From Sphaerotilus hippei (GTDB lineage: Bacteria; Pseudomonadota; Gammaproteobacteria; Burkholderiales; Burkholderiaceae_C): DNA of 64,000 nt. Each line of letters starts with the position of its first letter. Positions within the stretch are counted from its first letter, which is position 1. Where the stretch lies: positions 310,001-374,000 of the forward strand of contig NZ_QJJS01000001.1 of the NCBI RefSeq assembly GCF_003201595.1, written 5' to 3'. This document shows, in pieces, positions 13,433-62,764 of this stretch. The notes below the pieces were generated by a model that made no database searches, was not told where the DNA came from, and worked only from the letters and a program-made list of their open reading frames with translations. Made by a program: the position numbers and the translations under genes.

Positions 13433-13774
13433 ATGGCAACTGCTAAGAAAGCCGCCGCAAAGACCCCCGCAGCAAAATCCGCCCCGGCCCAGAGCGCAGC
13501 GGTGTCCGAAGCGGCTCCGGCCAAGCGTGCGCCCAACGCGGCTTTCATGAAGGCGATGACCCCGTCGGCTGCGCTGGCGGCAGTGATCGGCAAGGAGCCG
13601 GCACCGCGCACCGAAGTGACCAAGAAGGTCTGGGAATACATCAAGAAGCACAACCTCCAGGACGCGGCCAACAAGCGCATGATCAACGCCGATGCCAAGC
13701 TGAAGGCGATCTTCATGAAGGATCAGGTCTCGATGTTCGAGATGACCAAGCTGATCAGCAACCAGCTGTCCTGA
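13433..13774 (+). CDS. SWIB/MDM2 domain protein
   Basis: Small DNA-associated protein with a eukaryotic-type SWIB fold. The first 35 residues are an Ala/Lys/Pro-rich basic tail of histone-like character (AKKAAAKTPAAKS). Residues 38-113 form the SWIB domain: FMKAMTPSAALAAVIG, then the EVTKKVWEYIKKHNLQD helix and INADAKLKAIF, with a C-terminal helix ending in MFEMTKLISNQL. Such proteins occur in Burkholderiales and in Chlamydia, where SWIB is fused to topoisomerase; a nucleoid function is inferred only. A bidirectional terminator follows. Confidence 0.92.
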   Translation: MATAKKAAAKTPAAKSAPAQSAAVSEAAPAKRAPNAAFMKAMTPSAALAAVIGKEPAPRTEVTKKVWEYIKKHNLQDAANKRMINADAKLKAIFMKDQVSMFEMTKLISNQLS

Positions 13775-13807
13775 GCGCCGGGCGGCAACCGGCCGCTCCC
13801 GCCCAGC

Positions 13808-13839
13808 AAGAAGCCCGGCTCCGCCGGGCTTCTTCGTTT
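13808..13839. terminator. Intrinsic terminator between SWIB gene and argC
   Basis: The stem AAGAAGCCCGGC / GCCGGGCTTCTT with a 3-base TCC loop is followed by CGTTT on the plus strand. It ends the SWIB transcript and, being symmetrical, probably also the convergent argC transcript whose stop lies at its edge. Confidence 0.82.
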
Positions 13840-14780: not shown

Positions 14781-14826
14781 GGGGTCCTCTTCACAGTGCG
14801 CTGCAGCAAAAACAGGAGAATACGGC

Positions 14827-15399
14827 ATGAACAAGTCGGTTGAGACATGGCATGTGCTGGTGCTGCCCGGGTGGCAGGATTCCGGTGCGCAGCACTGGCA
14901 GTCCCGCTGGGTGCTGCGCCACGGCTACGAGCGGGTGGAGCAGGACGACTGGCTCTGGCCACGCCGTGGCGACTGGATGGCCCGGCTCGACGAGGCGGTG
15001 CTGGCCCGCCCGGTCGGGCAGCCGCTGGCGCTGGTGGCGCACAGCCTGGGGTGCCAGCTGGTGGCGGCCTGGGCCGAGCACAGCCGGCACGCGCAGCGTG
15101 TGCACGCCGCGCTGCTGGTGGCGCCGCCCGACACCGAACGCGAGGACATGCCGCCCCAGCTCCACAACTGGCGGCCGATGCGCCGTTCGCCGCTGCCCTT
15201 CGAGGCCCTGGCGCTGCTGTCGTCCGACGATCCGTACGCCACGCCCGAGCGGGCCGTCGACCTGTGCCGCAGCTGGGGAGCCGGCCACGAGGTGGTCGGT
15301 GCCCTGGGCCACCTGAACGACCACTCCGGCCTGGGTGACTGGGACGAGGGTCACCAGCGACTGCTCCGGCTGCTCGGCAGATCACGGACAATCGCCTGA
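14827..15399 (+). CDS. RBBP9/YdeN family serine hydrolase
   Basis: Small alpha/beta hydrolase of unknown substrate. At 190 residues it shows the family opening [18 protein letters not shown], the nucleophile elbow VAHSLGCQL (GxSxG variant with serine near residue 74) and the C-terminal catalytic histidine in [17 protein letters not shown] 14827 matches the family N-terminus. Its TGA overlaps the ATG of parB, so the two are translationally coupled. In related bacteria such a hydrolase lies between parA and parB; parA is missing here. Confidence 0.87.
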
Positions 15400-16307
15400 T
15401 GGTGACGAAGAAGCCCAAAGGACTTGGACGTGGATTGGAGGCCCTGCTGGGCCCGCAGGTGGCCGATGCGCCGCGGGCGGGTGCTCCGGCGGGTCAGCCT
15501 CATGCCGTCAAGCTGAGCCAGCTCTGTGCTGGCAAGTACCAGCCGCGCACGCGGATGGATGAAGGCTCGCTGTTCGAGCTGGCGGAAAGCATCAAGAGCC
15601 AGGGCGTGATGCAACCCATTCTGGTGCGTCCGATCGCTGCCAGCGATGGCTTGCCGATGTACGAGATCATCGCCGGCGAGCGGCGCAGCCGTGCGGCCCG
15701 CCTGGCGGGGCTCGAGGAGGTGCCGGTGCTGGTGCGCGACGTGCCCGACCAGGCCGCCGCCGCGATGGCGCTGATCGAGAACATCCAGCGCGAGGACCTC
15801 AATCCCCTCGAGGAGGCCCAGGGCGTGCAGCGCCTGGTCAGCGAGTTCGGCCTGACGCACGAGGAGGCCGCCCAGGCCATCGGGCGCTCGCGCAGCGCGA
15901 CCAGCAATCTGCTGCGCCTGCTGAACCTGGCCGCGCCGGTGCAGCAGATGCTGATGGCCGGTGACCTCGACATGGGGCACGCCCGTGCGCTGCTGCCGCT
16001 GGACAAGGTGCACCAGATCACCTGCGCCAACGAGATCGTCGGCCGCCAGCTGTCGGTGCGCGAGACGGAAAAGCTCGTGTCGCGCCAGGACGAGGCCCGC
16101 CAGGAGCCGGCACGCCGCGACCGTGGCGAGAAGTCGCGTGACCTGCAGCGCCTCGAGGAGCAGCTCGCCGACGTGCTGACCGCACCGGTCGAGATCCGTG
16201 TGCGCAAGCGCACCCGCCGGGGCGAGCAGGGCGAGATCGCGATCGGCTTCTCGTCGCTGGAAGAACTCAACGGCCTGCTGGACCGGCTGGGCCTGACCGA
16301 GCGCTGA
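15399..16307 (+). CDS. parB: Chromosome-partitioning protein ParB
   Basis: CTP-dependent DNA clamp that loads at parS sites and organises the replication-origin region. The N-terminus GLGRGLEALLG is the segment that recruits ParA. The ParB/Srx CTP-binding domain contains EIIAGERRSRAARLAG near residue 88, followed by ENIQREDLNPLEEAQ. A helix-turn-helix (LTHEEAAQAIGRSRSATSNLLRLL) recognises parS. The C-terminal 50 residues form the dimerisation domain. It is 302 residues long. No canonical parS (TGTTTCACGTGAAACA) was noticed within the window. Confidence 0.95.
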   Translation: MVTKKPKGLGRGLEALLGPQVADAPRAGAPAGQPHAVKLSQLCAGKYQPRTRMDEGSLFELAESIKSQGVMQPILVRPIAASDGLPMYEIIAGERRSRAARLAGLEEVPVLVRDVPDQAAAAMALIENIQREDLNPLEEAQGVQRLVSEFGLTHEEAAQAIGRSRSATSNLLRLLNLAAPVQQMLMAGDLDMGHARALLPLDKVHQITCANEIVGRQLSVRETEKLVSRQDEARQEPARRDRGEKSRDLQRLEEQLADVLTAPVEIRVRKRTRRGEQGEIAIGFSSLEELNGLLDRLGLTER

Positions 16308-49580: not shown

Positions 49581-51149
49581 TCAGGCGGCGGCCGGCGTGC
49601 GGATCAGGTGGTCGAAGGCGCTGAGCGCGGCCTTGGCGCCTTCGCCGGTGGCGATGATGATCTGCTTGTAGGGCACGGTCGTCACGTCACCCGCGGCGAA
49701 GATGCCCGGCACGCTGGTGTGGCACTTGGCGTCGACGATGATCTCGCCGAACTTGCTCAGCTCCACCGTGCCGCGCACGAACTCGGTGTTGGGCACCAGG
49801 CCGATCTGCACGAACACGCCGGCCAGATCGAGCAGGTGCTCGTCGCCGCTGACCCGATCCTTGTAGCGCAGGCCGTTCATCTTCTGGCCGTCGCCGGTGA
49901 CCTCGGTGGTCTGGGCGTTGACGTGGATGGTGACGTTGGGCAGGCTCTTGAGCTTGTCCACCAGCACCTGGTCGGCCTTGAGCTGGTCGGCGAATTCGAG
50001 CAGCGTGACGCTCTTGACCACGCCGGCCAGGTCGATCGCGGCCTCGACGCCGGAGTTGCCGCCGCCGATCACCGCCACGTCCTTGCCCTTGAACAGCGGG
50101 CCGTCGCAGTGCGGGCAGTAGGCCACGCCCTTGGTCTTGTATTCCTGCTCGCCGGGCACGTTCATGTTGCGCCAGCGCGCGCCGGTGGCCAGGATCACGG
50201 TGCGGCCCTGGAGCACGGCGCCGTTGTCCAGCGTGACCGCGGCGTAGCCGCCCGGCTGCTCGGCCGGATCGATCTTCGCCACCCGCTGCAGCGTGATGAT
50301 GTCCACGCCGTAGTGGCGCACATGCGCTTCCAGCGCGGCGGCGAACTTCGGCCCTTCGGTCTCCAGCACGGAGACGAAGTTCTCGATGCCCAGCGTGTCC
50401 ATGGTCTGGCCGCCGAAACGCTCGGCCACGATGCCGGTGCGGATGCCCTTGCGCGCGGCGTACACCGCGGCGGCGGCGCCGGCCGGGCCGCCACCGATGA
50501 TCAGCACCTCGTACGGGGCCTTTTCATTGAGCTTGGCCGCTTCGCGCCTGGCGGCGCCGGTGTCGATCTTGGCCAGGATCTCGCCGACTTCCATGCGGCC
50601 GTTGCCGAAGGGCTGGCCGTTCAGGAACACGCTGGGCACGGCCATGATCTGGCGGTCCTCGACCTCCTTCTGGAACAGGCCGCCGTCGATGGCCACGGCG
50701 CGGATGCGCGGGTTGAACACCGCCATCAGGTTCATCGCCTGCACCACGTCCGGGCAGTTGTGGCAGGTCAGGCTCATGAAGGTGTCGAAGGCGAAGTCAC
50801 CCTCGAGCGCCTTGATCTGCTCGAGCACCTCGGGCTCGACCTTGGGCGGGTGGCCGCCGGCCCACAGCAGCGCCAGCAGCAGCGAGGTGAACTCGTGGCC
50901 CATCGGCACGGCGGCGAAGTGCACGCCCATGTCGTGGCCGACGCGGGTGATCTGGAAGGAGGGGCGGCGCTCGAACGTGCCGTCCAGGCGCACGCCGATC
51001 CTGTCCGGCGCGATGGCGGCGATCTCGGTGACCAGCTCGCGGATGTCGGCGGCGCCTTCGGAGTCGTCGAGGCTGGCGATCAGCTCGATGGGCTGGGTGA
51101 TGCGCTCGAAATAGGAGGCGAGTTGTGCCTTGGTGCTGTCGTCCAACAT
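49581..51149 (-). CDS. ahpF: Alkyl hydroperoxide reductase subunit F
   Basis: NADH-dependent flavoprotein that re-reduces AhpC, 522 residues. The N-terminal tandem thioredoxin-like domain carries C129 and C132 (LTCHNCPD), the FAD site is [21 protein letters not shown] near 215-235, the redox dithiol C345/C348 lies in [12 protein letters not shown], and the NADH site is [14 protein letters not shown]. These positions match E. coli AhpF exactly. It lies downstream of ahpC on the same strand with a 182-base spacer containing a large hairpin. Confidence 0.97.
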
Positions 51150-51331: not shown

Positions 51332-51895
51332 TCAGATCTTGCCGACCAGGTCGATGCTCGGAGCCAGGGTCTTGGCGCCTTCCTTCCACTTGGCCGGGCA
51401 GACCTGGCCGGGGTTGGCGGCGGTGTACTGGGCGGCCTTCAGCTTGCGCAGGGTTTCCGACACGTCACGGGCGATCTCGTTGCTGTGGATCTCGGCCGTC
51501 TTGATCACGCCATCGGGGTTGATGACGAAGGTGCCGCGCAGCGCCAGGCCTTCTTCGGGGATGTGCACGCCGAAGGCATTGGTCAGCGTGTGGGTCGGGT
51601 CGCCGACCAGCGGGAACTTGGCCTTGCCGACGGCCGGCGAGGTCTCGTGCCACACCTTGTGCGAGAAGTGGGTGTCGGTGGTGACGATGTAGACCTCGGC
51701 ACCGGCGGCCTGGAAGGCGGCGTAGTTGTCGGCAGCGTCCTCGATCTCGGTCGGGCAGTTGAAGGTGAAGGCGGCCGGCATGAAGATCAGCACGGACCAC
51801 TTGCCCTTCAGGCTCTCTTCGCTGACCTCGATGAACTTGCCGTTGTGGAAGGCCTGGGTCTTGAAGGGCTGGACTTGGGTGTTGATCAGGGACAT
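51332..51895 (-). CDS. ahpC: Alkyl hydroperoxide reductase subunit C (peroxiredoxin)
   Basis: Typical 2-Cys peroxiredoxin reducing peroxides, 187 residues. The peroxidatic cysteine C47 is in FTFNCPTEIED and the resolving cysteine C166 in GQVCPAKW, with the conserved threonine and arginine of the active site present (ALRGTFVI). It is the first gene of ahpC-ahpF. The leader on the minus strand has a TAAGAT -10-like hexamer near 51940; an OxyR site is expected by function but no clear four-part ATAG motif was seen. Confidence 0.97.
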   Translation of the reverse strand: MSLINTQVQPFKTQAFHNGKFIEVSEESLKGKWSVLIFMPAAFTFNCPTEIEDAADNYAAFQAAGAEVYIVTTDTHFSHKVWHETSPAVGKAKFPLVGDPTHTLTNAFGVHIPEEGLALRGTFVINPDGVIKTAEIHSNEIARDVSETLRKLKAAQYTAANPGQVCPAKWKEGAKTLAPSIDLVGKI

Positions 51896-52119: not shown

Positions 52120-53034
52120 CTACCAGGCCCCGTCCTGCTGCTGGCGATGCGGCTCGAAGGCTTCCAGCAGGAAGTCCACCAAGGCACGGGTCTTGGCGGA
52201 CAGGTTGCTGCGCGTCGGAAACACGGCATAGATGTCGGCGGGAGGCAGGCTCCAGTCCGCCAGCACCGGTTTCAGCCGGCCCGAGCGCAGCATGGGTGCC
52301 GCCTCCCAGACGGATCGCATCAGGATGCCGTGCCCATCCAGGGCCCAGCCGACCACGCACTCGCCATCGTTGGAGGCCAGCGGTCCGCGCACCTTGACGG
52401 CTTCCGCACGGGCGCCGCTGCGAAGGTGCCAGGTGCCGAAGGTTTCGTCGCTCTCGCGGATGAACAGGCAGGCGTGCCGGGCGAGGTCCCGCGGTGAGGC
52501 CGGCTCCCCGGCACGGCGCAGGTAGGCCGGCGAGGCGCACAGCAGGCGTCGGTTGTGGGCCAGCAGCCGGGCGGTCAATCGAGCGTCCGGCAACTCGCCG
52601 AATCGCAGCTGCAGATCGAAGCCCTGCTCGATCAGGTTCACGGGCCGATCCGTGAGGTGCAGCTGCAGTTCGACGTCCGGATAGTCGCGCGTGAACCTCG
52701 ACAATGCGGGCGCGATGTGCCGCCGGCCGAAGCCCAGCGTGCAGCAGACACGCACCAGTCCCTTGGGGATGGCGCGGCTGCCGGACACGGTGCGCTCGAG
52801 GGCCTCCAGTTCTTCCAGCACCCGGGCGCCCTCTGAAAAATAGGTCTCGCCCTCCGGCGTGAGGCTGAGGCGGCGGGTGGATCGCTGCAGCAGCCGCACG
52901 CCCAGGCGCCGCTCGATGGCCGCCAGCCGCTTGCTCACCGCGGGAGGCGTCACGCCGATCTGCTGAGCCGCCGCGACCAGGCTTCCATGCTTGACCAACA
53001 AGGCAAAAAAGGCGATGTCGGAGAAGGCGTCCAT
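52120..53034 (-). CDS. LysR family regulator
   Basis: LysR-type regulator, 304 residues. The N-terminal winged helix FFALLVKHGSLVAAAQQIGVTPPAVSKRLAAIERRLGVRLLQRS is of the standard form, followed by the effector-binding domain (RVCCTLGFGRRHIAPALSRF, then FDLQLRFGELPDARL). It belongs to the large DsdC/GcvA-like set with a short linker. It is divergent from the Bug-type binding protein gene; a perfect inverted repeat lies between them, so it likely controls the tctC-leuCD-hydrolase run. The inducer is unknown. Confidence 0.93.
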   Translation of the reverse strand: MDAFSDIAFFALLVKHGSLVAAAQQIGVTPPAVSKRLAAIERRLGVRLLQRSTRRLSLTPEGETYFSEGARVLEELEALERTVSGSRAIPKGLVRVCCTLGFGRRHIAPALSRFTRDYPDVELQLHLTDRPVNLIEQGFDLQLRFGELPDARLTARLLAHNRRLLCASPAYLRRAGEPASPRDLARHACLFIRESDETFGTWHLRSGARAEAVKVRGPLASNDGECVVGWALDGHGILMRSVWEAAPMLRSGRLKPVLADWSLPPADIYAVFPTRSNLSAKTRALVDFLLEAFEPHRQQQDGAW

Positions 53035-53055
53035 TCATTCCTCTGGGGACCGAAA

Positions 53056-53082
53056 GAACTGCTTCTGAAGATATTGCAGTTC
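53056..53082 (+). promoter_or_regulatory. Inverted-repeat operator for the LysR regulator
   Basis: GAACTGC (53056-53062) and GCAGTTC (53076-53082) are perfect complements with a 13-base spacer in the 110-base divergent region, 63-89 bases before the binding-protein ATG, the position expected of a LysR recognition site. Confidence 0.62.
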
Positions 53083-53144
53083 ACATGTTCACTCCTAGCA
53101 TACCGGTACCGCGACCTGCGGCCACAAGACCTGGAGACAAAAGC

Positions 53145-54107
53145 ATGCAACTTCGATCATTGGTGGCGGCTCTGGCACTTTCCGTGTCGAGTCTGCCCCT
53201 CTGGGCCCAGAGCTACCCTGAACGTGCGGTCAAGCTGCTGGTGCCCTACGCGCCCGGTGGCAGCGCCGACATCGTGGCCCGCCTGATCGCGGATGAATGG
53301 GGCAGGTCGCTGGGCAAGCCGGTGTTCATCGAGAACAAGGCGGGCGCAGGGGGCAACCTGGGCGTGGATGCCGTCGCCAAGTCGATTCCCGACGGTCACA
53401 CCATCGGTCTGCAGACGGTGTCGTTGGCCATCAATCCGGCCCTCACGCCCAGGATGCCCTACGACACGCTGAAGGATCTGGCCCCCATCGGCATGGTGGC
53501 GACTTCGCAGCATGTGCTGGTCGTCCATGACCGGCTGCCCGTCAGCAACCTCAAGGAGCTCCTGGCGCATGCCAGGAGCAAGCCGGGCAAGCTGACCTAC
53601 GGCTCGGCGGGCGGCGGCAGCACCCTGCACATGTCGGCCGAGTTGTTCAAGGCGGTGGGTGGCCTGGCCATGCTTCACATTCCCTACCGCGGAGGCGGCC
53701 AGGCCCTGACGGACACCCTGGCCGGACAGGTGGACATGTCCTTCCCGGTGCTCTCCGCCGCGGCTGGCCATGTCCAGGCCGGAAAGGTCCGTGCGCTGGG
53801 TGTCACGGGCAGCAAGCGCTCGCCGCTGATGCCCGACGTCCCGACGATCGCGGAAGCCGGTTTGCCGGGCTACGCCTTCGAGACCTGGTTCATGGTGTTC
53901 GCTCCGGCGCAAGTTCCCAAGCCCGTGCTGGACAAGCTCAACAGCTCGCTCAACGCCGTCCTGCAATCTCCCGCCATCAAGGAGCGCATGGCCAGGGAAG
54001 GCTTCGACGCCACTTCATCGACTCCGGCACAGGCGCGCGTGCGCCTGGAGTCGGAGATGCCCAGATGGGCCAGGCTCGTCAAGGAGCGTGGCATCACCGC
54101 GGATTGA
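53145..54107 (+). CDS. Bug-family (TctC) periplasmic solute-binding protein
   Basis: Periplasmic binding protein of the tripartite tricarboxylate transporter group, 320 residues from ATG 53145 (GGAGA upstream). The signal peptide is LRSLVAALALSVSSLPLWAQ, cleaved before SYPERAVKLLVPYAPGGSADI, the Bug hallmark. Other family blocks are FIENKAGAGGNLG and YGSAGGGSTLHMSAELFK. These proteins usually bind carboxylates; membrane partners tctA and tctB are not linked here. It is the first gene of a cluster with leuC- and leuD-like genes. Confidence 0.93.
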   Translation: MQLRSLVAALALSVSSLPLWAQSYPERAVKLLVPYAPGGSADIVARLIADEWGRSLGKPVFIENKAGAGGNLGVDAVAKSIPDGHTIGLQTVSLAINPALTPRMPYDTLKDLAPIGMVATSQHVLVVHDRLPVSNLKELLAHARSKPGKLTYGSAGGGSTLHMSAELFKAVGGLAMLHIPYRGGGQALTDTLAGQVDMSFPVLSAAAGHVQAGKVRALGVTGSKRSPLMPDVPTIAEAGLPGYAFETWFMVFAPAQVPKPVLDKLNSSLNAVLQSPAIKERMAREGFDATSSTPAQARVRLESEMPRWARLVKERGITAD

Positions 54108-54194
54108 CATGCACCCGTCCTCTCCTCCTGACCCGCGCAGCGTCGATTGGCCTGCACCGGGATCCCGGCCCCTCACCCCCTTCGGCCCACACGC

Positions 54195-55607
54195 ATGACA
54201 GCCAGAACCCTCTATCGCAAACTGGTGGACAGCCACACCGTGGCGCAGATGGACGAACAGAACGTGCTCCTGTTCTGCGATCTGCACCTGATGAACGAGT
54301 ACACCAGCCCGCAGGCCTTCGCCGGCTTGCACGAAGCCGGACGCGGCGTTCCGGTCCCCGGGCAGAACGTGGCCGTGGTGAGTCACATCATCCCGACGCA
54401 CCCGGGCCGGTTTCGCGTGATCGCCGATCCGGCCTCGGCACTGCAGGCCAGCAATCTCAGGAAGAACTGCGACCACTTCAACATTCCCCTGTTCGACACC
54501 AACGACGCGCTGCAAGGCATTGAGCATGTGGTCGCGCCGGAGCACGGCCTCATCCGTCCGGGCATGGTGGTCATCTGCGGCGACAGCCACACGACCACCT
54601 ACGGTGCGCTCGGTGCACTCGGCTTCGGCATCGGAACCACTGAAGTCGAGCATGTGCTCGCGACCCAGACCCTGGTGTATCGCCTGGCCAGGGACATGCA
54701 CATCCGCGTCGATGGACGACTGCCGATGGGCACGACCGCCAAGGACCTGGTGCTCGCCATCATCGGTCGCATCGGTGCGCAGGGCGCGCGTGGTTTCGTG
54801 GTCGAGTATTCCGGCCCGGCGATCGATGCGCTGTCGGTGGAGGCTCGCTTCACGCTGTGCAACATGACGGTCGAGGCCGGTGCACGCGGCGCGTTGATCG
54901 CCCCGGATCAAGCCGCCATCGACTACGTGATGGCCCATGCGCCGGACCTGCTGGAGCACCGCGACGCCGCCTTGGGTGCCTGGCAGCAGTTGCGCAGCGA
55001 TGAAGGCGCCTTCTTCGAGGTCGAGCATCAGTTCGACGCCTCCCGGATCGCGCCGCATGTCACCTGGGGCACCAGCCCCGATCAGGTGGTCGCCATCGAT
55101 GGTGTCCTGCCGCGTCTGGCGGCACTGGACGCCGGCCCCGTGCGCAGCAGCGCCGAGCGTGCGCTGGCCTACACGCAACTGCAGGAAGGCGCGCGCCTGG
55201 CCGGAACGGCGGTGCAACATGTGTTCATCGGCTCCTGCACCAATGGACGCATCGAAGATCTGCGTGCGGCCGCCAGCGTGGTTCGAGGGCGTCAGGTGGC
55301 CACGGGCGTGCGTGCCATGGTGGTGCCGGGCTCGGGTGCGGTGAAGGCCGCCGCCGAAGCCGAGGGCCTGGCCGACGTGTTCATCAACGCAGGTTTCGAA
55401 TGGCGCAACCCGGGCTGCTCCATGTGTCTGGCGATGAATGACGACGTGCTCGCCGACGGCGTGCGCTGCGCCTCCACCACCAACCGCAATTTCGAGGGCC
55501 GCCAGGGCCGCGGCGCCATCACTCACCTCATGAGCCCCGCGATGGCCGCCGCCGCCGCGGTGACGGGGCGCATCACCGACGCACGCCAACTGGAGATCCT
55601 CCCATGA
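54195..55607 (+). CDS. leuC: LeuC-type aconitase-family large subunit
   Basis: Fe-S hydro-lyase large subunit, 470 residues, same size as LeuC. The [4Fe-4S] ligands are one cysteine in VFIGSCTNGRIEDLRAAA and two in NPGCSMCLAMNDDVL; the substrate region has ICGDSHTTTYGALGALGFGIGTTEVEHVLATQ. It is clearly LeuC-like, but there is no leuB or leuA here and its neighbours are a LysR regulator, a carboxylate-binding protein and a dehalogenase. It may be a paralogue acting on another 2-substituted malate (for example citramalate or dimethylmalate) rather than leucine synthesis. leuD overlaps its stop by 4 bases. Confidence 0.86.
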   Translation: MTARTLYRKLVDSHTVAQMDEQNVLLFCDLHLMNEYTSPQAFAGLHEAGRGVPVPGQNVAVVSHIIPTHPGRFRVIADPASALQASNLRKNCDHFNIPLFDTNDALQGIEHVVAPEHGLIRPGMVVICGDSHTTTYGALGALGFGIGTTEVEHVLATQTLVYRLARDMHIRVDGRLPMGTTAKDLVLAIIGRIGAQGARGFVVEYSGPAIDALSVEARFTLCNMTVEAGARGALIAPDQAAIDYVMAHAPDLLEHRDAALGAWQQLRSDEGAFFEVEHQFDASRIAPHVTWGTSPDQVVAIDGVLPRLAALDAGPVRSSAERALAYTQLQEGARLAGTAVQHVFIGSCTNGRIEDLRAAASVVRGRQVATGVRAMVVPGSGAVKAAAEAEGLADVFINAGFEWRNPGCSMCLAMNDDVLADGVRCASTTNRNFEGRQGRGAITHLMSPAMAAAAAVTGRITDARQLEILP

Positions 55608-56245
55608 GCGATCCGAGCCTCATTCATGTCCATGGCCGTGCCGCGGCCCTGCGCATCGAGAACCTGGACACGGACCAGATCATCCCCAAGCAGTTCCTGC
55701 GCGGCATCGACAAGTCCGGGCTCAAGGACGGCGTCTTCCATGACCTGCGATGCGACGGCGCCGGACAGGTCCGTCCCGACTTCGTGCTCAACCAGCCGGC
55801 CTACGGCGATGCCTCGATCTTGATCGCTGGCAACAACTTCGGCTGCGGCTCCAGCCGTGAGCACGCGGTGTGGGGACTGCAGCAGCTGGGCATCCGTGCC
55901 ATCGTGGCGCCCAGCTTCGGCGAGATCTTCTACTCCAACGCGATGAACAATCGCCTGCTGCTGGTGATGTTGCCGCAGGCCACCGTCTCGCGGTTGATGG
56001 CGGACGCGGACGATCCGACCACCAACCAGGTCCGGATCGACCTGGAGGCCATGTCGCTGCGCAGCGCCACCGTGCAGGCCGGCTTCGAACTGATGCCGCG
56101 CCATCGCAGGATGTTTCTCGAAGGCCTGGACAGCATCGGCCTGTCGCTGACCTTCCAGGCGCAGATCGATGCCTTCGCCCAGGACCACTGGGCCCGCCAG
56201 CCCTGGCTGCGCGACGTGGCGGCCCTCACCAGGAGCCGCCTGTGA
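55604..56245 (+). CDS. leuD: LeuD-type aconitase-family small subunit
   Basis: Swivel domain partner of the large subunit, 213 residues. It contains LDTDQIIPKQFLRGIDKSGL near the start and the family-specific AGNNFGCGSSREHAVWGLQQ with the substrate-binding serine/arginine, then IVAPSFGEIFYSNAMNNRLL. It overlaps the large-subunit stop (ATGA) and overlaps the next gene by 4 bases (GTGA), so three genes are translationally coupled. The pair's substrate is uncertain, as stated for the large subunit. Confidence 0.88.
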   Translation: MSDPSLIHVHGRAAALRIENLDTDQIIPKQFLRGIDKSGLKDGVFHDLRCDGAGQVRPDFVLNQPAYGDASILIAGNNFGCGSSREHAVWGLQQLGIRAIVAPSFGEIFYSNAMNNRLLLVMLPQATVSRLMADADDPTTNQVRIDLEAMSLRSATVQAGFELMPRHRRMFLEGLDSIGLSLTFQAQIDAFAQDHWARQPWLRDVAALTRSRL

Positions 56246-57174
56246 CCGACCCGCGAGCCCGTGGCCCGGCGAGCGAGGCCATGGAGGATCTGTTCCCCGG
56301 ATTCAGCACGCAGGACCTCACCACCGAGCCCGGCGTGCACATCCGCGTGCGCACCGGCGGGCGGGGCGCTCCGCTGCTGCTGCTGCACGGCCATCCGCAG
56401 ACCCACGCCATCTGGCACAAGGTGGCGCCGGCGCTGGCGGCGCACTTCACGCTGGTGCTCGCCGACCTGCGGGGCTATGGCGACTCGGCCAGGCCGGCCG
56501 GCGATGCCGGACACCTGGCCCACAGCAAGCGCACGATGGCGCGCGACATGCTGCACGTGATGCGGTCGCTGGGCCATGAGCGCTTCAGCGTGCTGGCGCA
56601 TGACCGTGGTGCCCGCGTGGCCCACCGGCTGGCGCTGGACCATGCCGCCGCAGTGCGCCGTCTGGTGCTGCTCGACATCGCGCCCACGCTGGCGATGTAC
56701 GAGCAGACCGGCGAGGCCTTCGCGCGGGCCTACTGGCACTGGTTCTTCCTGATCCAGCCGGCACCGCTGCCCGAGCGGCTGATCGCCGCCGATCCCGCCG
56801 CCTATGTGCGTGACGTGATGGGCCGCCGCAGCGCGGGCCTGGCGCCCTTCGACCCGCGTGCGCTGGCCGAGTACCAGCGCACGCTGGCGCTGCCGGGCAC
56901 CGCCCACGGCATCTGCGAGGACTACCGCGCTTCGGCCGGCATCGACCTGGAGCACGACCGCACCGACCGCGACCGCGGCGTGCGCCTGGCGGCGCCGCTG
57001 CTGGCGCTGTGGGGCCGCGACGGCGTGGTGCACCGCTGCTTCCAGCCGCTGGCCGAGTGGCGGCGGGTGGCCGACGACGTGCGCGGCGAGGCCTTGCCCT
57101 GCGGCCACTACATCGCCGAGGAAGCGCCCGACGTGCTGCTGCAGGCGGCGCTGCCCTTCCTCACCGCCGCCTGA
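56242..57174 (+). CDS. Haloacetate (fluoroacetate) dehalogenase-type alpha/beta hydrolase
   Basis: 310-residue alpha/beta hydrolase from GTG 56242 (ATG 56281 is an alternative). Against remembered Rhodopseudomonas fluoroacetate dehalogenase numbering, a constant offset of 11 aligns nucleophile D121 and carboxylate-binding R122 and R125 (HDRGARVAHRLALDH), acid D145 (VLLDIAP) and halide-pocket H166-W167 (YWHWFFL). The base H289 (PCGHYIAEEAP) and probably Y228 (CEDYRASAG) also fit with a 2-residue gap. The full pocket suggests real haloacetate hydrolysis, although epoxide hydrolases share the fold. It is translationally coupled to leuD. Confidence 0.82.
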   Translation: MTDPRARGPASEAMEDLFPGFSTQDLTTEPGVHIRVRTGGRGAPLLLLHGHPQTHAIWHKVAPALAAHFTLVLADLRGYGDSARPAGDAGHLAHSKRTMARDMLHVMRSLGHERFSVLAHDRGARVAHRLALDHAAAVRRLVLLDIAPTLAMYEQTGEAFARAYWHWFFLIQPAPLPERLIAADPAAYVRDVMGRRSAGLAPFDPRALAEYQRTLALPGTAHGICEDYRASAGIDLEHDRTDRDRGVRLAAPLLALWGRDGVVHRCFQPLAEWRRVADDVRGEALPCGHYIAEEAPDVLLQAALPFLTAA

Positions 57175-57213: not shown

Positions 57214-57861
57214 TCAGGCCTCGATCAGTCCCCAGCGCAGTGCCAGCAGCGTCAGCTCGGCCTGGTTGGAGGCGGCCAGCTTCTGCTTGACGTGGTAGAG
57301 GTGGGTGCCGATGGTGCTGGCCGACAGCTTGAGCGCCTGCGCGATCTCCTGGACCGAGCGGCCCCGGGCCAGCTGCACGAAGACCTCGAACTCGCGCGCG
57401 GACAGCGCGTCGACGGGGTTGCTGCCGCCGTCGAGCGCGGCCAGCGCCAGCTGCTGGGCGGTGGCCGCGTCGAGGTAGCGGCGCCCGGCGCCGACGCAGC
57501 GCACCGCCTGCGGCAGCGCATCGGGCGCGCTGCCCTTGGAGAGGAAACCCAGCGCGCCGGCGTCGAGCGCGCGCCGGGCGTGGGCGCTGTCGTCGTGGGC
57601 TGACAGCACCAGCACCTTCAGCTGGGGCTCGCGCGAGCGCAGCCGGCGCAGGGCCTCGAGCCCGCCCATGCCGGGCATCGACAGGTCGAGCACGACGACG
57701 TCCGGCCGGGCGGTGGCCAGCAGCGTCAGGGCTTGCTCGCCGCTGTCGGCCTCGGCCACGACGCTCAGGTCCGGGCTGGCGCCCAGCAGCATGCAGAACC
57801 CCATGCGCACCAGCGTGTGGTCGTCGACCAGCATGATGCGCAGCGGCGCGTGTTCCGTCAT
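57214..57861 (-). CDS. NarL/LuxR-type response regulator
   Basis: Two-component response regulator, 215 residues from ATG 57861. The receiver domain has the acidic pair in MLVDDHTLVRMG, phospho-acceptor aspartate in DVVVLDLSMPGMGG near residue 56 and the lysine in LGFLSKGSAP. The C-terminal LuxR helix-turn-helix is LSAREFEVFVQLARGRSVQEIAQALKLSASTIGTHLYHVKQKL. It overlaps the kinase gene by 4 bases. Its location beside the pqq operon suggests control of PQQ or PQQ-dependent alcohol oxidation, as with ExaDE-type systems (inference). Confidence 0.93.
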   Translation of the reverse strand: MTEHAPLRIMLVDDHTLVRMGFCMLLGASPDLSVVAEADSGEQALTLLATARPDVVVLDLSMPGMGGLEALRRLRSREPQLKVLVLSAHDDSAHARRALDAGALGFLSKGSAPDALPQAVRCVGAGRRYLDAATAQQLALAALDGGSNPVDALSAREFEVFVQLARGRSVQEIAQALKLSASTIGTHLYHVKQKLAASNQAELTLLALRWGLIEA

Positions 57862-59300
57862 CCGAGGCCCTCCGGGGGTGATGGTGTCAGCGGCAGTGTG
57901 GCACGCAGGCGGGTGCCGGGCCGGCCATCCGCGCCGGCGGTGTCGTCCCGCGCCGCCAGTTCCAGCTCGCCGCCGAGCGCCTGCACCCGCTCCAGCAGGC
58001 CGCGCAGGCCGTGGCGGCCCCGGGTCTGCGCATCGGCGGGCAGGCCGATGCCGTCGTCCTCGAGCTGCAGCGTGGCCCGGTCGGCGTGGCCGTGCAGGGC
58101 CAGCGCCAGGTGCCGGGCGCCGCTGTGGCGCAGCGCATTGGTCAGGCCTTCCTGGGCGACGGCGTAGAGCGTGCGGGCGACGTCGCGGGGCAGCGCGCGG
58201 GCCAGCGCATCCCGGTCGGCCGGCGCCTGCCATTCGAGCGTGATGCCGGGGTGGCTGGCCCGGGTCCGGTCGACCAGCCCCGTCAGCGCGTCGGGCAGGC
58301 CGAGCTCGTCGAGCGCGGGCGGGCTCAGGCGCGGGATCAGCCCGTGCATCGCGTCATAGAGCCGGGCGGCCTCGTCGCCGATCAGCCGGGCCGCCTGCGC
58401 GCCGCTGTCGTCGTGCTGCCGGTCCAGGCGCTGCTGCAGCCCCCGCGCCAGGCTGCGGATGGCGGTCACCGACTGGGCGAACTCGTCGTGCAGCTCCCGG
58501 GCGATGGCGCGGCGCTCGGCGTCGGTGTGGGCCTCGAGCCGGCGCATGAACTCGCGGTGCTCCGACAGCCTGCGCTCGGCCTCGAAGGCGCGCAGGCGGG
58601 CGTCGAGCTGCTCCTCGATCGCCGCGGCCAGGCGGTTGACCTCCCGTCCGATCAGGCTGGCTTCCTTGCCGGGCAGGGCGGGCAGGCGCACGTGGTAGTC
58701 GCCCTCGCGCAGCCGGCTCAGGCCGGTGACGATGGTCGGCCAGGGCCGCAGGGCCCGCCCGACCAGCCAGAACACGCCCAGGTGCAGCAGCACCAGCGCG
58801 CCCGCGCCCAGCAGCGCCAGGCGCTGCAGCTCGTCCCAGCCGTCGAGGATGGCCCGCGAAGGATCGGCCTCGACCGTCAGCCGCCCGCCCGGCAGGTCGA
58901 TCACCTGGCGCTGCGGCAGCGGTGCCACCAGCGTGCTGTACCAGGCCGGCGCTTCGCGGCCCTGCTTGTAGATCGAGGGCGGCGAGCGGAACAGCACCTC
59001 GCCCGTGTCGCTCTCGAGCGTGATGTCGTTGGCGCGCACCCGGCCGAGCTGCTCGAGGAACTGGCCCATCGCTCCCGGCCCGGCGCGGGTGTAGACCCAG
59101 GTGACCCGCTGCAGCAGCTGGCTGGCGACCCGGTTGGCCGCGACGATCTCCTCGTGCACGCTGCGGCGCGTGCTGTCGATCTGCAGCGCCACCAGCACGG
59201 CCACGAACACGCCCGTCAGCAGGGCGACGAGCGTGTGGATCTGCAGGCGCAGGCCCCAGCGCGGGGGGCGTGCGGGCAGCGTGTCGGTCGGCGTGGACAT
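57858..59300 (-). CDS. Sensor histidine kinase (NarX/UhpB-type)
   Basis: Membrane sensor kinase, 480 residues from ATG 59300. The first membrane helix is LQIHTLVALLTGVFVAVLVALQ, then a periplasmic sensor of about 125 residues, then the second helix LALLGAGALVLLHLGVFWLVG and a HAMP domain. The phospho-acceptor histidine is in ERRAIARELHDEFAQSVTAI (HisKA_3) and the ATP-binding domain has LTNALRHSGARHL, DDGIGLPADA and GRHGLRGLLERV. It pairs with the response regulator by gene overlap and is divergent from pqqA (198 bases between starts). Confidence 0.93.
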   Translation of the reverse strand: MSTPTDTLPARPPRWGLRLQIHTLVALLTGVFVAVLVALQIDSTRRSVHEEIVAANRVASQLLQRVTWVYTRAGPGAMGQFLEQLGRVRANDITLESDTGEVLFRSPPSIYKQGREAPAWYSTLVAPLPQRQVIDLPGGRLTVEADPSRAILDGWDELQRLALLGAGALVLLHLGVFWLVGRALRPWPTIVTGLSRLREGDYHVRLPALPGKEASLIGREVNRLAAAIEEQLDARLRAFEAERRLSEHREFMRRLEAHTDAERRAIARELHDEFAQSVTAIRSLARGLQQRLDRQHDDSGAQAARLIGDEAARLYDAMHGLIPRLSPPALDELGLPDALTGLVDRTRASHPGITLEWQAPADRDALARALPRDVARTLYAVAQEGLTNALRHSGARHLALALHGHADRATLQLEDDGIGLPADAQTRGRHGLRGLLERVQALGGELELAARDDTAGADGRPGTRLRATLPLTPSPPEGLG

Positions 59301-59363
59301 GGTCGCGATTGTCGGCCGGCCCGTCGACGCTGCCGCGGGCCCGGGGGCCGGCCGGTCCCGCAT

Positions 59364-59391
59364 TCATGAAAATCATGAGCGCCGATTCATG
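59364..59391. promoter_or_regulatory. Clustered TCATGA motifs between the kinase gene and pqqA
   Basis: Two identical palindromic hexamers TCATGA (59364-59369 and 59373-59378) separated by AAA, and a third TCATG at 59387. They lie in the divergent region and may be sites for the NarL-type regulator encoded next door. Confidence 0.42.
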
Positions 59392-59429
59392 CGGGTGACG
59401 AGGACGGCGCAGGCCGTGCCGCCGACACT

Positions 59430-59469
59430 GGAATCGATGCAGCGCCAAGCCCGGTGCCGCATCGATTCC
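59430..59469 (+). repeat. Long perfect hairpin in the pqqA leader
   Basis: GGAATCGATGC (59430-59440) and GCATCGATTCC (59459-59469) are perfect 11-base complements. Inside, GCGCC can pair with GGTGC (one G-U), leaving a 6-base loop and one A-C mismatch. It ends 28 bases before the pqqA ATG. Confidence 0.75.
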
Positions 59470-59497
59470 ATCCACCGCCTGTTCAGGAGACGACACC

Positions 59498-59572
59498 ATG
59501 ACCTGGGAAACCCCCGCTGCCTGCGATTTCCGTTTCGGTTTCGAGATCACGATGTACGTGGCCGCTCGCTGA
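59498..59572 (+). CDS. pqqA: PQQ precursor peptide PqqA
   Basis: 24-residue ribosomal precursor of pyrroloquinoline quinone, MTWETPAACDFRFGFEITMY followed by VAAR. The cross-linked pair E16 and Y20 in the invariant ExxxY motif is present. AGGAGA lies 8 bases upstream of the ATG as Shine-Dalgarno. It is the first gene of pqqABCDE; a long hairpin in its leader may protect the high-level pqqA message or regulate it. Confidence 0.96.
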   Translation: MTWETPAACDFRFGFEITMYVAAR

Positions 59573-59605
59573 GCGACCCGGACCTCGCCGAACCTCTGGC
59601 CTGAC

Positions 59606-60535
59606 ATGCCGGGCTCCTCCATGACCCTGCGGGTGCTCGGTTCGGGCGCCGGCGGTGGCTTTCCGCAGTGGAACTGCAACTGCGTCCAGTGCACCGCCGT
59701 GCGCGCCGGCTCGCCCCATCACCGGGCCCGCACCCAGTCGTCGATCGCCGTGGGCGGCCCCGACGACTGGCTGCTGGTCAATGCCTCCCCCGACATCCTG
59801 ACCCAGCTGCAGCGCAGCCCGGCGCTGCAGCCGGCACGGGCCGTGCGAGACACCGGCATCGCCGCCGTGCTGCTGTGCGATGGCCAGATCGACCACAGCA
59901 CCGGCCTGTACATGCTGCGCGAGCGTGGCACGCCGCTGCCGCTGTGGACCACCCGGCCGGCCTTCGAGGACCTGAGCCAGGGCAACCCGATCCTGCGCGT
60001 GCTGTCGCACTACTGCGGCGTCGACTGGAACGAGCTGCCGATCGATGGCACCTCGTTCAGCGTGCCCGGGGTCGCCGGCCTGCGCCTGACGGCGATGCCG
60101 CTCGACAGCAAGCCCGCGCCCTACTCGCCGCACCGCGAACGGCCGGTGCCCGGTGACAACATCGGCCTGGTGTTCGAGAACCTGCGCACCGGCGGGCGGG
60201 TCTTCTACGCGCCCGGCCTGGGCGAGATCAGCCCGCTGGTCTGGGAGACGCTGGGCACGGTCGATGCCGTGATGGTCGACGGCACCTTCTGGACCGACGA
60301 CGAGATGATCCGCCTGGGCTTCTCGAAGAAGACCGCCCGCGACATCGGCCACCTGCCGCAGTCCGGCCCCGGCGGCATGCTCGACTGGCTCGCCCGCCTG
60401 CCCGCGAGCACCCGCAAGCTGCTCATCCACATCAACAACACCAATCCGATTCTCGACGAGTCGTCGCCCGAGCGGCGCGCGGTCGAGGCCGCGGGCGTCG
60501 AGGTGACGTTCGACGGACTGGAACTCACGTTCTGA
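59606..60535 (+). CDS. pqqB: PQQ biosynthesis protein PqqB
   Basis: MBL-fold protein, proposed hydroxylase of the PQQ intermediate, 309 residues. It begins at ATG 59606 or more likely ATG 59621 ([21 protein letters not shown]). The paired cysteines of the conserved NCNCVQC segment bind a structural zinc. The MBL ligand region appears as [16 protein letters not shown], a PqqB-specific variant. It lies 33 bases after pqqA. Confidence 0.95.
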
Positions 60536-60543
60536 GCCTGCCC

Positions 60544-61323
60544 ATGAGCACCGCCACCGGCAACCGCTTCGGTACCCCGTTCAACGCGCCCGCCACCTTC
60601 CGTGCCCGCGAGCCCGACGCCCCGGCCTGGGACCGCGTCGCCTTCGAGGCGCAGCTGCGCGAGCAGGGCAGGAGCTATCACATCCACCACCCGTTCAACG
60701 TCATGCTGAACACGGGCCGCGCCACGCCCGAGCAGATCCGCGGCTGGGTGGCCAACCGCTTCTACTACCAGATCGCCATTCCGGTGAAGGACGCGGCGGT
60801 GCTGGCCAACTGCCCGGACCGCGAGGTGCGGCGCGAGTGGATCCAGCGCCTCCTCGACCACGACGGCTTCGAGATCGGCGGGGTGAAGGACGAAGGGGGC
60901 ATCGAGGCCTGGATCCGCCTCGGCCAAGCCGTGGGCCTGGGCCGCGAGGAGATCACCGACCTGCGCCACGTGATCCCGGCGGTGCGCTTCGCGGTCGATG
61001 CCTACGTGAACTTCGCGCGCCACGCGCCGTGGCAGGAGGCGGTGTGCTCGTCGCTGACCGAGCTGTTCGCGCCCGAGATCCACAAGCAGCGCCTGGCCAC
61101 CTGGCCCGAGCACTACGGCTGGATCGAGCCGACCGGGCTGCAGTACTTCCGCAACCGCGTCAGCCAGGCGCGACGTGACGTCGAGCAGGGGCTGGCGGTC
61201 ACGCTCGGCCATTTCCGCAGCCGCGACCAGCAGGAGCGGGCGCTGGAGATCCTGCGCTTCAAGCTCGACATCCTCTGGGCGATGAACGACGCGATGGCGC
61301 AGCGCTACGGGGTGGCGGCATGA
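60544..61323 (+). CDS. pqqC: Pyrroloquinoline-quinone synthase PqqC
   Basis: Cofactor-free oxidase that closes the last ring of PQQ, 259 residues. Family landmarks are [32 protein letters not shown] in part, [31 protein letters not shown] and the C-terminal [19 protein letters not shown]. The active-site histidines and tyrosines of these blocks are present. Its TGA overlaps the pqqD start by 4 bases. Confidence 0.97.
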
Positions 61324-61619
61324 CGACGCCGACCTCCGCGCCCGACACCCGGCTGCCCGACACGACGACCCCGCGCCTCGGCCGCGGTTTCCGCCTGCAG
61401 TGGGAAGCGGCGCAGGGCAACCACGTGCTGCTCTACCCCGAGGGCATGGTCAAGCTCAACCGCAGCGCGGGCGAGATCCTGACCCGCTGCACTGGCGAGG
61501 CGGCGCTGCCGCAGTTGGTCGCCGATCTCGAGGCGGCCTTCGGTGCCCCCGACCTGCGTGGTGACGTCGAACGTTTCCTCGCCCTGGCCCGCCAGCAGCG
61601 CTGGGTGGACTGGGCATGA
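61320..61619 (+). CDS. pqqD: PQQ peptide chaperone PqqD
   Basis: 99-residue RiPP recognition element that presents PqqA to PqqE. The winged-helix core is seen as [34 protein letters not shown] with VLLYPEG and [13 protein letters not shown] family motifs, then a helical end. The N-terminal 18 residues are Thr/Pro-rich. It overlaps both neighbours by 4 bases, consistent with strict co-translation. Confidence 0.95.
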
Positions 61620-62764
61620 GCGCGGTGCCGACCGTCGGCCCGCCGCTGTGGCTGCTGGCGGAGGTGACCTACCGCTGTCCGCTGCACTGCGTGTTCTGCT
61701 ACAACCCGATCGACCTGGCCGACACCGGGCGCGCCGACGAGCTGTCGACCGCCGACTGGCTGCGCGTGCTGCGCGAGGCGAGGGCGCTGGGCGCGGTGCA
61801 GTGCGGCTTCTCGGGCGGCGAGCCGCTGATGCGCGAGGACCTCGAGGACCTGATCGCCGAGGCCCGCCGGCTGGGGTATTACACCAACCTGCTGACCTCG
61901 GGCGTCGGCCTGAGCCCCGAGCGTGCCGCGTCGCTGAAGGCCGCCGGGCTCGACCACGTGCAGCTCAGCTTCCAGGACTCGACCCGTGAGCTGAACGATT
62001 TCCTCAGCCACACGAAGACCTTCCAGCTCAAGCAGGGCGTGGGCGAGCTGATCAAGTCGCACGGCTGGCCGATGGTGATGAACGTCGTCATCCACCGCCT
62101 CAACATCGATCACATCGACCGCATCATCGCGATGGCCGACGCGCTCGGCGCCGAGTACCTGGAGCTGGCCAATTCCCAGTACTACTCGTGGGCGCACCTG
62201 AACCGGGATCACCTGCTGCCCACCAGCGAGCAGATCCGCCGCGCCGAGGCCGTCACCGACGCCTGGCGCGAGAAGGTGGCCGACCGGATGAAGCTGTTCT
62301 TCGTGGCGCCCGACTACCACGAGGGCCAGCCCAAGAAGTGCATGAACGGCTGGGGCAACGTCTTCCTGACGGTCACGCCCGACGGCACCGCGTTGCCTTG
62401 CCACACCGCGAAGATGCTGCCCGGGCTGGCCTTCCCGAACGTGCGTGACCACGACGTGCGCCACATCTGGCACGACAGCGAGGGCTTCAACCGCTACCGC
62501 GGCACCGGCTGGATGAAGGGCGCCTGCGCCACCTGCCCGGACCAGCAGAAGGACCTCGGCGGCTGCCGCTGCCAGGCCTTCCTGCTGACGGGCGATCCGG
62601 CCGCGACCGACCCGGTCTGTCCGAAGAGCGAGCGCCACGGGATCGTGCAGGCGGCGGTGGCCGCGGCCGATGCCGGCGAGGTACCGACGCGTCCGCTGGT
62701 GTTCCGCGATCCGAAGTCTTCCCGCCTGTTGACGCACCCTGGCGCGGGCCCTCGAACTTCCTGA
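61616..62764 (+). CDS. pqqE: PqqA peptide cyclase PqqE (radical SAM)
   Basis: Radical SAM enzyme forming the Glu-Tyr carbon-carbon bond in PqqA, 382 residues. The SAM cluster cysteines are C21, C25 and C28 in CPLHCVFC, with the GGEP motif in GFSGGEPLM. The C-terminal SPASM domain has cysteines in KKCMNGWGN, ALPCHTAK, KGACATCPDQQ, GGCRCQAF and DPVCPKS for auxiliary clusters. It ends the pqqABCDE operon; no pqqF protease is adjacent. Confidence 0.97.
   Translation: MSAVPTVGPPLWLLAEVTYRCPLHCVFCYNPIDLADTGRADELSTADWLRVLREARALGAVQCGFSGGEPLMREDLEDLIAEARRLGYYTNLLTSGVGLSPERAASLKAAGLDHVQLSFQDSTRELNDFLSHTKTFQLKQGVGELIKSHGWPMVMNVVIHRLNIDHIDRIIAMADALGAEYLELANSQYYSWAHLNRDHLLPTSEQIRRAEAVTDAWREKVADRMKLFFVAPDYHEGQPKKCMNGWGNVFLTVTPDGTALPCHTAKMLPGLAFPNVRDHDVRHIWHDSEGFNRYRGTGWMKGACATCPDQQKDLGGCRCQAFLLTGDPAATDPVCPKSERHGIVQAAVAAADAGEVPTRPLVFRDPKSSRLLTHPGAGPRTS

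What the first reader, a model, noticed from the sequence alone, without database searches (positions are those of the whole stretch)
52120..57174. LysR-controlled cluster joining a carboxylate-binding protein, a LeuCD-type hydratase and a dehalogenase
LysR, Bug/TctC, LeuC, LeuD and a haloacetate-dehalogenase-type hydrolase form one divergent unit with 4-base overlaps between the last three genes. No leuA or leuB is near. Such coupling suggests one catabolic route: uptake of a (halogenated or branched) carboxylate, dehalogenation, and isomerisation or hydration by an aconitase-family enzyme. I know of no described pathway with this exact gene set.
Basis: partly seen in the sequence, partly recalled or inferred. 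Interest (0 to 1): 0.72.

Follow-up and report, generated by a model that had tools for sequence, protein, structure and literature searches.

The report
LeuCD paralogue paired with dehalogenase-like hydrolase
A small, mobile gene set shared by many bacteria pairs an enzyme usually labelled 'fluoroacetate dehalogenase' with a remodelled copy of a leucine-pathway enzyme, and it probably breaks down a small diacid rather than a halogenated compound.

Summary
All five genes are present, with 4-base overlaps at leuC/leuD and leuD/hydrolase. The genome has a separate leuC-leuD-leuB, so this pair is a paralogue (LeuC 54% identical). Its LeuC falls in a separate clade (SH-aLRT 99) with fixed changes near the active site. 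The hydrolase lies within 0.7 kb on the same strand at 33 of 37 LeuC2 loci (36 of 399 family genomes), in two gene orders, and the pairing recurs in Pseudomonas, Rahnella, Pantoea and Klebsiella plasmids.

New clue: in family genomes without an intact linked LeuC2, the hydrolase gene adjoins a tartrate/D-malate dehydrogenase gene in 50 of 80 tested. Of 80 named LeuC2 loci, 16 carry a 2-hydroxycarboxylate transporter and none of these 16 has the hydrolase. The hydrolase keeps dehalogenase catalytic residues, but its pocket tryptophan is usually arginine. The only fluoride-exporter match in the loci held is beside a reference dehalogenase on plasmid pUO1.

Best reading: the hydrolase makes a 2-hydroxy-dicarboxylate that LeuCD2 or tartrate dehydrogenase consumes. 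My specific guess, inferred only, is epoxysuccinate to tartrate to oxaloacetate.

The parts
52120..53034 (-). LysR-type regulator, divergent from the operon
   Evidence: Pfam HTH_1 and LysR_substrate; best NCBIfam model is TtdR, tartrate regulator, 255.5 bits, well below its cut-off of 398. A LysR match (38% or more identity) lies within 7.5 kb at 71 of 80 named LeuC2 loci.
53145..54107 (+). TctC/Bug solute-binding protein (likely start 53145; longest ORF from 53085)
   Evidence: Pfam TctC 246.6 bits. TctC (45% or more identity, within 7.5 kb) at 17 of 80 named LeuC2 loci, 7 with and 10 without FAcD.
54195..55607 (+). LeuC2, large subunit of an aconitase-family hydro-lyase
   Evidence: Aconitase family, NCBIfam NF009116 733.6 bits and TIGR00170 596.6 bits; separate clade SH-aLRT 99; N34, Y36, I65, E110, T134, Y136.
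55604..56245 (+). LeuD2, small subunit
   Evidence: Aconitase_C, NCBIfam NF002458 and TIGR00171; L40 and V89 in 111 of 111 LeuD2 against F and P in 26 of 26 biosynthetic.
56242..57174 (+). FAcD-type alpha/beta hydrolase with Asp nucleophile (D121)
   Evidence: Best PDB match 9c9f, named fluoroacetate dehalogenase, 77% identical; D121, R122, R125, D145, H166, W167, Y211, H289 kept; Arg196 near the site of the pocket Trp.

Best explanation
A horizontally acquired, LysR-controlled catabolic operon for a small dicarboxylate. The Bug/TctC protein binds the acid for uptake. The FAcD-type hydrolase attacks the carbon next to a carboxylate with its Asp nucleophile and leaves a hydroxyl there, giving a 2-hydroxy-dicarboxylate. 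LeuCD2, a remodelled aconitase-family enzyme, then dehydrates it. In other bacteria a tartrate/D-malate dehydrogenase takes the place of LeuCD2 as the consumer. My specific commitment: epoxysuccinate to tartrate by the hydrolase, then tartrate to oxaloacetate by LeuCD2. Shown here: genes, overlaps, paralogy, conserved linkage, alternative partner, residue changes. Inferred: order of steps, substrate, product. I give about 0.55 to the general statement (hydrolase makes a 2-hydroxy-dicarboxylate used by LeuCD2) and about 0.25 to the epoxysuccinate/tartrate version.
For: FAcD next to LeuC2 at 33 of 37 loci in family genomes, in two orders, and within 7.5 kb at 42 of 80 named loci in four arrangements; divergences of the two proteins correlate (Mantel r 0.73, highest of 2000 shuffles 0.30, 64 loci; kinship of hosts not controlled). 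FAcD next to TTC (at most 94 bp, same strand) in 50 of 80 other genomes. 2HCT carriers at 16 of 80 loci, none with FAcD (Fisher p 8e-7, kinship not corrected), in Burkholderiales and in Pseudomonas alike. DctA within 1.9 kb at 7 loci, all with FAcD. Arg at 196 in 68 of 73 LeuC2-linked and 31 of 31 TTC-linked hydrolases where H1, FA1, 3qyj and 8sdc have Trp. LeuC2/LeuD2 changes. Precedent for dehalogenase-like epoxysuccinate hydrolases: the two known CESH[L] are about 30% identical to L-2-haloacid dehalogenase (PMC6429283, passage). The Klebsiella version adds a FAH-family gene, a family that includes acylpyruvase FAHD1, fitting an oxo-acid product, though its best relatives are HpaG-type and deoxyrhamnonate enzymes.
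Against: No substrate was tested. Arg196 is also in 29 of 34 unlinked relatives, including 9c9f, which its depositors call fluoroacetate dehalogenase; so it marks a subfamily, not the linkage. The alignment of Arg196 with the Trp is uncertain by one residue against H1 and FA1. All dehalogenase catalytic residues are kept. TTC is present in 78 of the 80 genomes and acts on D-malate too. 38 of 80 named LeuC2 loci have no FAcD within 7.5 kb, 10 of them with TctC. One further DctA locus (L111, DctA 4.9 kb away) lacks FAcD; counting it, the DctA association has p 0.06. L197 has LeuC2, 2HCT and a distant FAcD-like gene together. 30 of the 80 genomes have neither an adjacent TTC nor an intact linked LeuC2.
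Confidence: 0.5

Rival explanations
1. D-malate route: LeuCD2 is a maleate (or citraconate) hydratase giving D-malate (or citramalate), the hydrolase makes D-malate from a 2-halosuccinate, and a TTC-type D-malate dehydrogenase elsewhere in the genome finishes the job.
For: Two TTC genes over the family cut-off in the window's genome, away from the operon; FAcD-TTC pairs; LeuCD2 directly followed by TTC at L109 and L170. Maleate hydratases of LeuCD type are recalled, not tested.
Against: 2HCT carriers, which import 2-hydroxy-acids, beside FAcD-less LeuCD2 (16 of 80 loci) suggest that a 2-hydroxy-acid is the substrate of LeuCD2, not its product. A natural source of 2-halosuccinate is not known to me.
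Confidence: 0.2
2. Haloacetate use or detoxification: the hydrolase is a true fluoro- or chloroacetate dehalogenase, and LeuCD2 deals with a side product or backs up an inhibited aconitase.
For: All catalytic and halide-site residues kept; 77% identity to 9c9f, named fluoroacetate dehalogenase.
Against: CrcB-type fluoride exporter homologues were found in none of 280 loci held except pUO1; no fluoride riboswitch in the window (but none in the pUO1 stretch either, so weak). TTC as other partner has no role in haloacetate use. FAcD-less LeuCD2 loci are common (38 of 80).
Confidence: 0.12
3. A spare isopropylmalate isomerase that lies beside a hydrolase by chance.
For: LeuC2 passes the NCBIfam leuC cut-off (596.6 against 560.25 bits).
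Against: A complete leuCDB elsewhere; separate clade; fixed changes; conserved linkage.
Confidence: 0.03

Closest known systems
Isopropylmalate isomerase LeuCD (E. coli b0072/b0071; the genome's own leuCD)
   Same: Same two-subunit aconitase-family architecture; over the NCBIfam leuC and leuD cut-offs; 55% (LeuC) and 43% (LeuD) identical to E. coli.
   Different: Separate clade, fixed changes at several pocket positions, no leuA or leuB near, linked to a hydrolase and LysR.
Fluoroacetate dehalogenases (H1 of Delftia acidovorans, FA1, 9c9f)
   Same: Asp nucleophile, Arg pair, His-Trp-Tyr halide site, catalytic His and Asp.
   Different: 43% identical to H1; Arg in place of the pocket Trp; partners LeuCD2 or TTC, whereas the pUO1 gene taken as H1 lies near crcB. 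9c9f itself shares the Arg.
Tartrate dehydrogenase/D-malate dehydrogenase (TTC, TIGR02089)
   Same: Occupies the place next to the hydrolase in 50 of 80 genomes, so probably uses the same product.
   Different: An NAD-dependent dehydrogenase family, unrelated to LeuCD; not in this operon.
cis-Epoxysuccinate hydrolases (CESH)
   Same: Proposed reaction type; CESH[L] resemble haloacid dehalogenases (PMC6429283, passage).
   Different: CESH[L] resemble L-2-haloacid dehalogenase, a different protein family (that it is a different fold is recalled); no sequence comparison was made.
Maleate hydratase HbzIJ, citraconase, dimethylmalate dehydratase DmdAB (recalled)
   Same: Catabolic use of LeuCD-like proteins on small diacids (recalled).
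   Different: No sequences were at hand; kinship not tested.

Membership tests
Biosynthetic isopropylmalate isomerase (LeuCD) | Sequence over the curated leuC and leuD cut-offs | tested here: met
   TIGR00170 596.6 against 560.25 bits; TIGR00171 187.5 against 116.25
Biosynthetic isopropylmalate isomerase (LeuCD) | Groups with biosynthetic LeuC in a tree | tested here: not met
   LeuC2 clade of 44 rows, SH-aLRT 99, apart from the clade with the 29 biosynthetic rows
Biosynthetic isopropylmalate isomerase (LeuCD) | Pocket residues of biosynthetic LeuC and LeuD | tested here: not met
   Y36, E110, T134 in 116 of 116 LeuC2 against V, V (28 of 28) and S (27 of 28); LeuD2 L40, V89 in 111 of 111 against F, P in 26 of 26
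Biosynthetic isopropylmalate isomerase (LeuCD) | Linked to leuA or leuB, or the only leuCD of the genome | tested here: not met
   leuCDB at G000:C2; no leuA or leuB match in the window
Fluoroacetate dehalogenase (FAcD) | Catalytic Asp, Asp, His and the Arg pair | tested here: met
   D121, D145, H289, R122, R125
Fluoroacetate dehalogenase (FAcD) | His-Trp-Tyr halide site | tested here: met
   H166, W167, Y211
Fluoroacetate dehalogenase (FAcD) | Pocket Trp (W180 of H1) | tested here: not met
   Arg196 (Arg195 in the alignment to H1; no Trp at either place). 9c9f also lacks the Trp, so this may not be a defining feature.
Fluoroacetate dehalogenase (FAcD) | Activity on fluoroacetate | not testable with these tools
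   No assay possible
Maleate/citraconate hydratase (HbzIJ, DmdAB) | Groups with characterised members | not tested
   No characterised sequence was at hand
Tartrate dehydratase / epoxysuccinate hydrolase route | Activity on tartrate and on epoxysuccinate | not testable with these tools
   Only gene context and residues bear on it

The most novel reading that the evidence does not exclude
A large clade of enzymes annotated as fluoroacetate/haloacetate dehalogenases are dicarboxylate hydrolases in nature (epoxysuccinate to tartrate), and LeuC2/LeuD2 is an aconitase-type tartrate dehydratase. Together they form a two-enzyme route from a fungal epoxy-diacid to oxaloacetate, carried on islands and plasmids across Beta- and Gammaproteobacteria.
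Probability: 0.25. Interest if true: 0.8.

Novelty: new variant of a known kind. Interest (0 to 1): 0.6.

Why it matters
Fluoroacetate dehalogenases are much studied carbon-fluorine-breaking enzymes and are used in pollutant research. If a large clade of them works naturally on small diacids, as its gene partners suggest, many annotations ('haloacetate dehalogenase', 'leuC', 'leuD') mislead, and the origin of defluorinase activity becomes testable as a side activity of dicarboxylate hydrolases. It would also give candidate genes for a tartrate-forming and tartrate-dehydrating route. One purified enzyme pair could settle it.

Tried and rejected
Biosynthetic LeuCD: rejected by tree, residues and the second leuCDB. 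Fluoride link: no CrcB homologue in 280 loci except pUO1; no Rfam match in the window, but none in the first 34 kb of pUO1 either, so the riboswitch half is weak. Ser or Asp at LeuC position 63: not associated with FAcD (Asp 29 with, 28 without; Ser 13 with, 9 without; 1 locus not scored). Clusters c33/c34 beside FAcD-TTC, guessed in my notes to be a transporter, read by eye as HU- and PpiD-like housekeeping proteins and were dropped.

Corrections to my own counts: the 'TTC 0' printed is an artefact of an over-long query and is not used (L109 and L170 have TTC). The 76 LeuC2-linked hydrolases held truncated duplicates; one search gives 73. In one search LeuC groups were set by residue 34, so that residue is not independent there; groups were set by the better BLAST query, N34 was in 114 of 114 'window-like' rows, and 2 of 31 'E. 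coli-like' rows (L159, L177) were also N. One of the 80 genomes counted as lacking LeuC2 (G097) has a linked LeuC2 that reads in two frames; LeuC matches were absent from the other 38 of 39 such loci that I checked. In one search I used 66 of the FAcD rows (the best-scoring ones and that of G415).

Papers: searches. PMC11223199 (Delftia enzymes) is not held.
Full report
OBSERVATION. The ATGA and GTGA overlaps at 55604 and 56242 are exact. Likely starts are 53145 for TctC and 54195 for LeuC. Upstream lie AhpC (51332-51895) and an AhpF-like protein (49581-51149), downstream a two-component system. In the two same-genus relatives whose interval between AhpC and that system I read (G007, G002), the LysR, TctC, LeuC and hydrolase genes have no match there and the downstream block lies inverted. 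None of 12 same-genus genomes had a LeuC2-level match (best full-length hits 55% identity or less; two incomplete assemblies, G004 and G006, gave fragments only). The operon looks acquired.

PARALOGUE. The genome has a second leuC (768.8 bits to TIGR00170, against 596.2 here) followed by leuD and leuB; the two LeuC are 54% identical. In an 83-row tree, made with the quick method, LeuC2 forms a clade of 44 rows (SH-aLRT 99) apart from a clade of 32 rows that holds the 29 biosynthetic ones (SH-aLRT 96). One LeuC2 row comes from a 'Frankiaceae' MAG (L108), which may be mis-binned. NCBIfam subfamily NF009116 (PRK12466) outscores TIGR00170 in all five LeuC2 proteins tested and is outscored in both biosynthetic ones tested; so the subfamily is known, under the name isopropylmalate dehydratase.

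REMODELLED POCKET. Against biosynthetic LeuC, LeuC2 has N34 for H, Y36 for V, I or V65 for N, E110 for V, T134 for S and mostly Y136 for H. After removal of near-duplicates Y36, E110 and T134 are in 116 of 116, where 28 biosynthetic rows have V (28), V (28) and S (27). In the alignment to homoaconitase 4kp2, N34 stands at the His of that enzyme's THD motif; its equivalence to aconitase Gln72 is recalled. Residue 65 follows His64, invariant in both groups. LeuD2 has L40 for F and V89 for P (111 of 111 each), L48 for W (100 of 111) and G91 for A (110 of 111); that positions 30-50 form the substrate-recognition loop is recalled.

THE HYDROLASE. Its best PDB match is 9c9f, named fluoroacetate dehalogenase, 77% identical. 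G253 encodes a protein 99.7% identical to the 9c9f stretch; there it lies beside a LysR gene, without LeuC2. The reference enzyme H1 is taken here as the alpha/beta hydrolase of plasmid pUO1: its residues D105, H150, W180 and H272 fit the numbering of PMC12955510 (passages; check). It is 43% identical to the window enzyme. All catalytic and halide-site residues are kept. Near the pocket Trp (W180 of H1; PMC12955510 chose it because smaller residues there let a related enzyme accept bulky substrates) the window enzyme has Arg196. Arg is there in 68 of 73 LeuC2-linked, 31 of 31 TTC-linked and 29 of 34 unlinked relatives; the five linked exceptions have Gln (2), Thr (2) and Gly (1). H1, FA1, 3qyj and 8sdc have Trp; the aligner puts the Trp of H1 and FA1 one column earlier, so the match is uncertain by one residue.

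CONSERVED LINKAGE. FAcD matches (E<=1e-100) occur in 139 of 399 family genomes, LeuC2 (E<=1e-165) in 36 of 399, with 37 loci. At 33 of the 37 the two are within 0.7 kb on one strand: 29 in the order FAcD-LeuC, 4 as LeuC-LeuD-FAcD including the window; the misses are G203, G030, G119 and the second copy of G166. In 80 named genome loci (best 80 of a capped scan), FAcD lies within 7.5 kb of LeuC2 in 42, in four arrangements. Pairwise divergences of the two proteins correlate over 64 linked loci (Mantel r 0.73). On plasmids: Pantoea has leuC-leuD-FAcD-LysR, Paraburkholderia LysR-FAcD-leuC-leuD-symporter, Klebsiella pneumoniae MFS-leuC-leuD-FAH-FAcD-LysR (61 plasmid records match, 60 over at least 80% of the query). 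The Klebsiella LeuC, and the Pantoea LeuC tested, show the LeuC2 residues. The same Klebsiella stretch had no near match in the E. coli genomes.

THE ALTERNATIVE PARTNER. Of the 106 FAcD genomes without a linked LeuC2 at the cut-off, 80 were searched for tartrate dehydrogenase TIGR02089. In 50 of 80 a TTC gene lies at most 94 bp from FAcD on the same strand, 49 times downstream of it. TTC is present in 78 of the 80 genomes, so adjacency, not presence, is the signal. The other 30 include FAcD beside a LysR and a carboxymuconolactone-decarboxylase-family gene (L181, L193), FAcD behind a family-5 ABC transporter (L191), and G097 with a linked but frame-broken LeuC2.

TRANSPORT LOGIC. Among the 80 named loci the linked carriers are TctC (17 loci), 2HCT 2-hydroxycarboxylate carriers (16), DctA C4-dicarboxylate symporters (7 within 1.9 kb, and L111 at 4.9 kb) and an MFS family (6) (families; counts). 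All 16 2HCT loci lack FAcD within 7.5 kb (Fisher p 8e-7). The 7 close DctA loci all have it (p 0.012; with L111, which lacks FAcD, p 0.06). Kinship is not corrected for; the 2HCT pattern and the DctA pattern each occur in Burkholderiales and in Pseudomonas. TctC and MFS occur with and without FAcD, and 9 loci have neither FAcD nor any of these carriers. One locus outside the 80, L197, has LeuC2, 2HCT and a distant FAcD-like gene. The simplest reading is that FAcD makes the 2-hydroxy-acid that LeuCD2 consumes, and is not needed where that acid is imported.

MECHANISM. Step 1 (inferred): Asp121 attacks the carbon alpha to a carboxylate held by Arg122 and Arg125, with a second carboxylate near Arg196; an epoxide oxygen or a halide leaves; water frees a 2-hydroxy-dicarboxylate. 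Step 2 (inferred): LeuCD2 dehydrates it. Tartrate fits best: its dehydration gives oxaloacetate directly, tartrate dehydrogenase is the other consumer, and trans-epoxysuccinate is a fungal product that bacteria turn into meso-tartrate (last point recalled; searches listed no paper that I could see to name a gene for it). D-malate is the main alternative.

LITERATURE. Seen: PMC8567785 (whole text); PMC10790756, PMC12955510, PMC11139923, PMC13230308, PMC6429283, PMC10138715 (passages). All others were seen only as search listings. No paper held both 'haloacetate dehalogenase' and 'isopropylmalate dehydratase'. Most subscription papers are not held, so absence here is not proof.

VERDICT. A real, conserved catabolic module of known protein families, not described in what I could search, whose likely function differs from its annotation. 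The coupling is strong; the substrate is a hypothesis.

Noticed in passing
L276 (NZ_MN543579.1, 6140-19006): Klebsiella pneumoniae plasmids carry the module with an added FAH-family gene (MFS-leuC-leuD-FAH-FAcD-LysR); 61 plasmid records match. The hydrolase there is close to PDB 4nvr, deposited as 'putative acyltransferase'.
   Followed up: partly
L222:11276-13690 (plasmid pUO1): The gene taken as dehalogenase H1 lies near crcB (fluoride exporter) and a LysR gene, a context unlike that of the LeuCD2-linked hydrolases.
   Followed up: partly
L167:12050-13423 and L169:8725-10107: In two Pseudomonas genomes LeuC2-LeuD2 is followed by a MmgE/PrpD-family gene instead of a hydrolase.
   Followed up: no
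L138 and L151, about 12000-15600: LeuC2-LeuD2 followed by a PdxA-like gene (by eye), a distant FAcD-like gene (41-44% identity) and an MFS transporter.
   Followed up: no
L223-L227 (G040, G047): Another group of LeuC paralogues in two order-level relatives, with DHYV where biosynthetic LeuC has DHNV/DHNT; separate from LeuC2.
   Followed up: no
window 57214-62000: Two-component block that lies inverted relative to AhpC in same-genus genomes G007 and G002.
   Followed up: partly
window 56242-57174: The hydrolase gene has higher GC (0.743) than LeuC and LeuD (0.671, 0.660), which may mean that the operon was assembled from separate sources.
   Followed up: no
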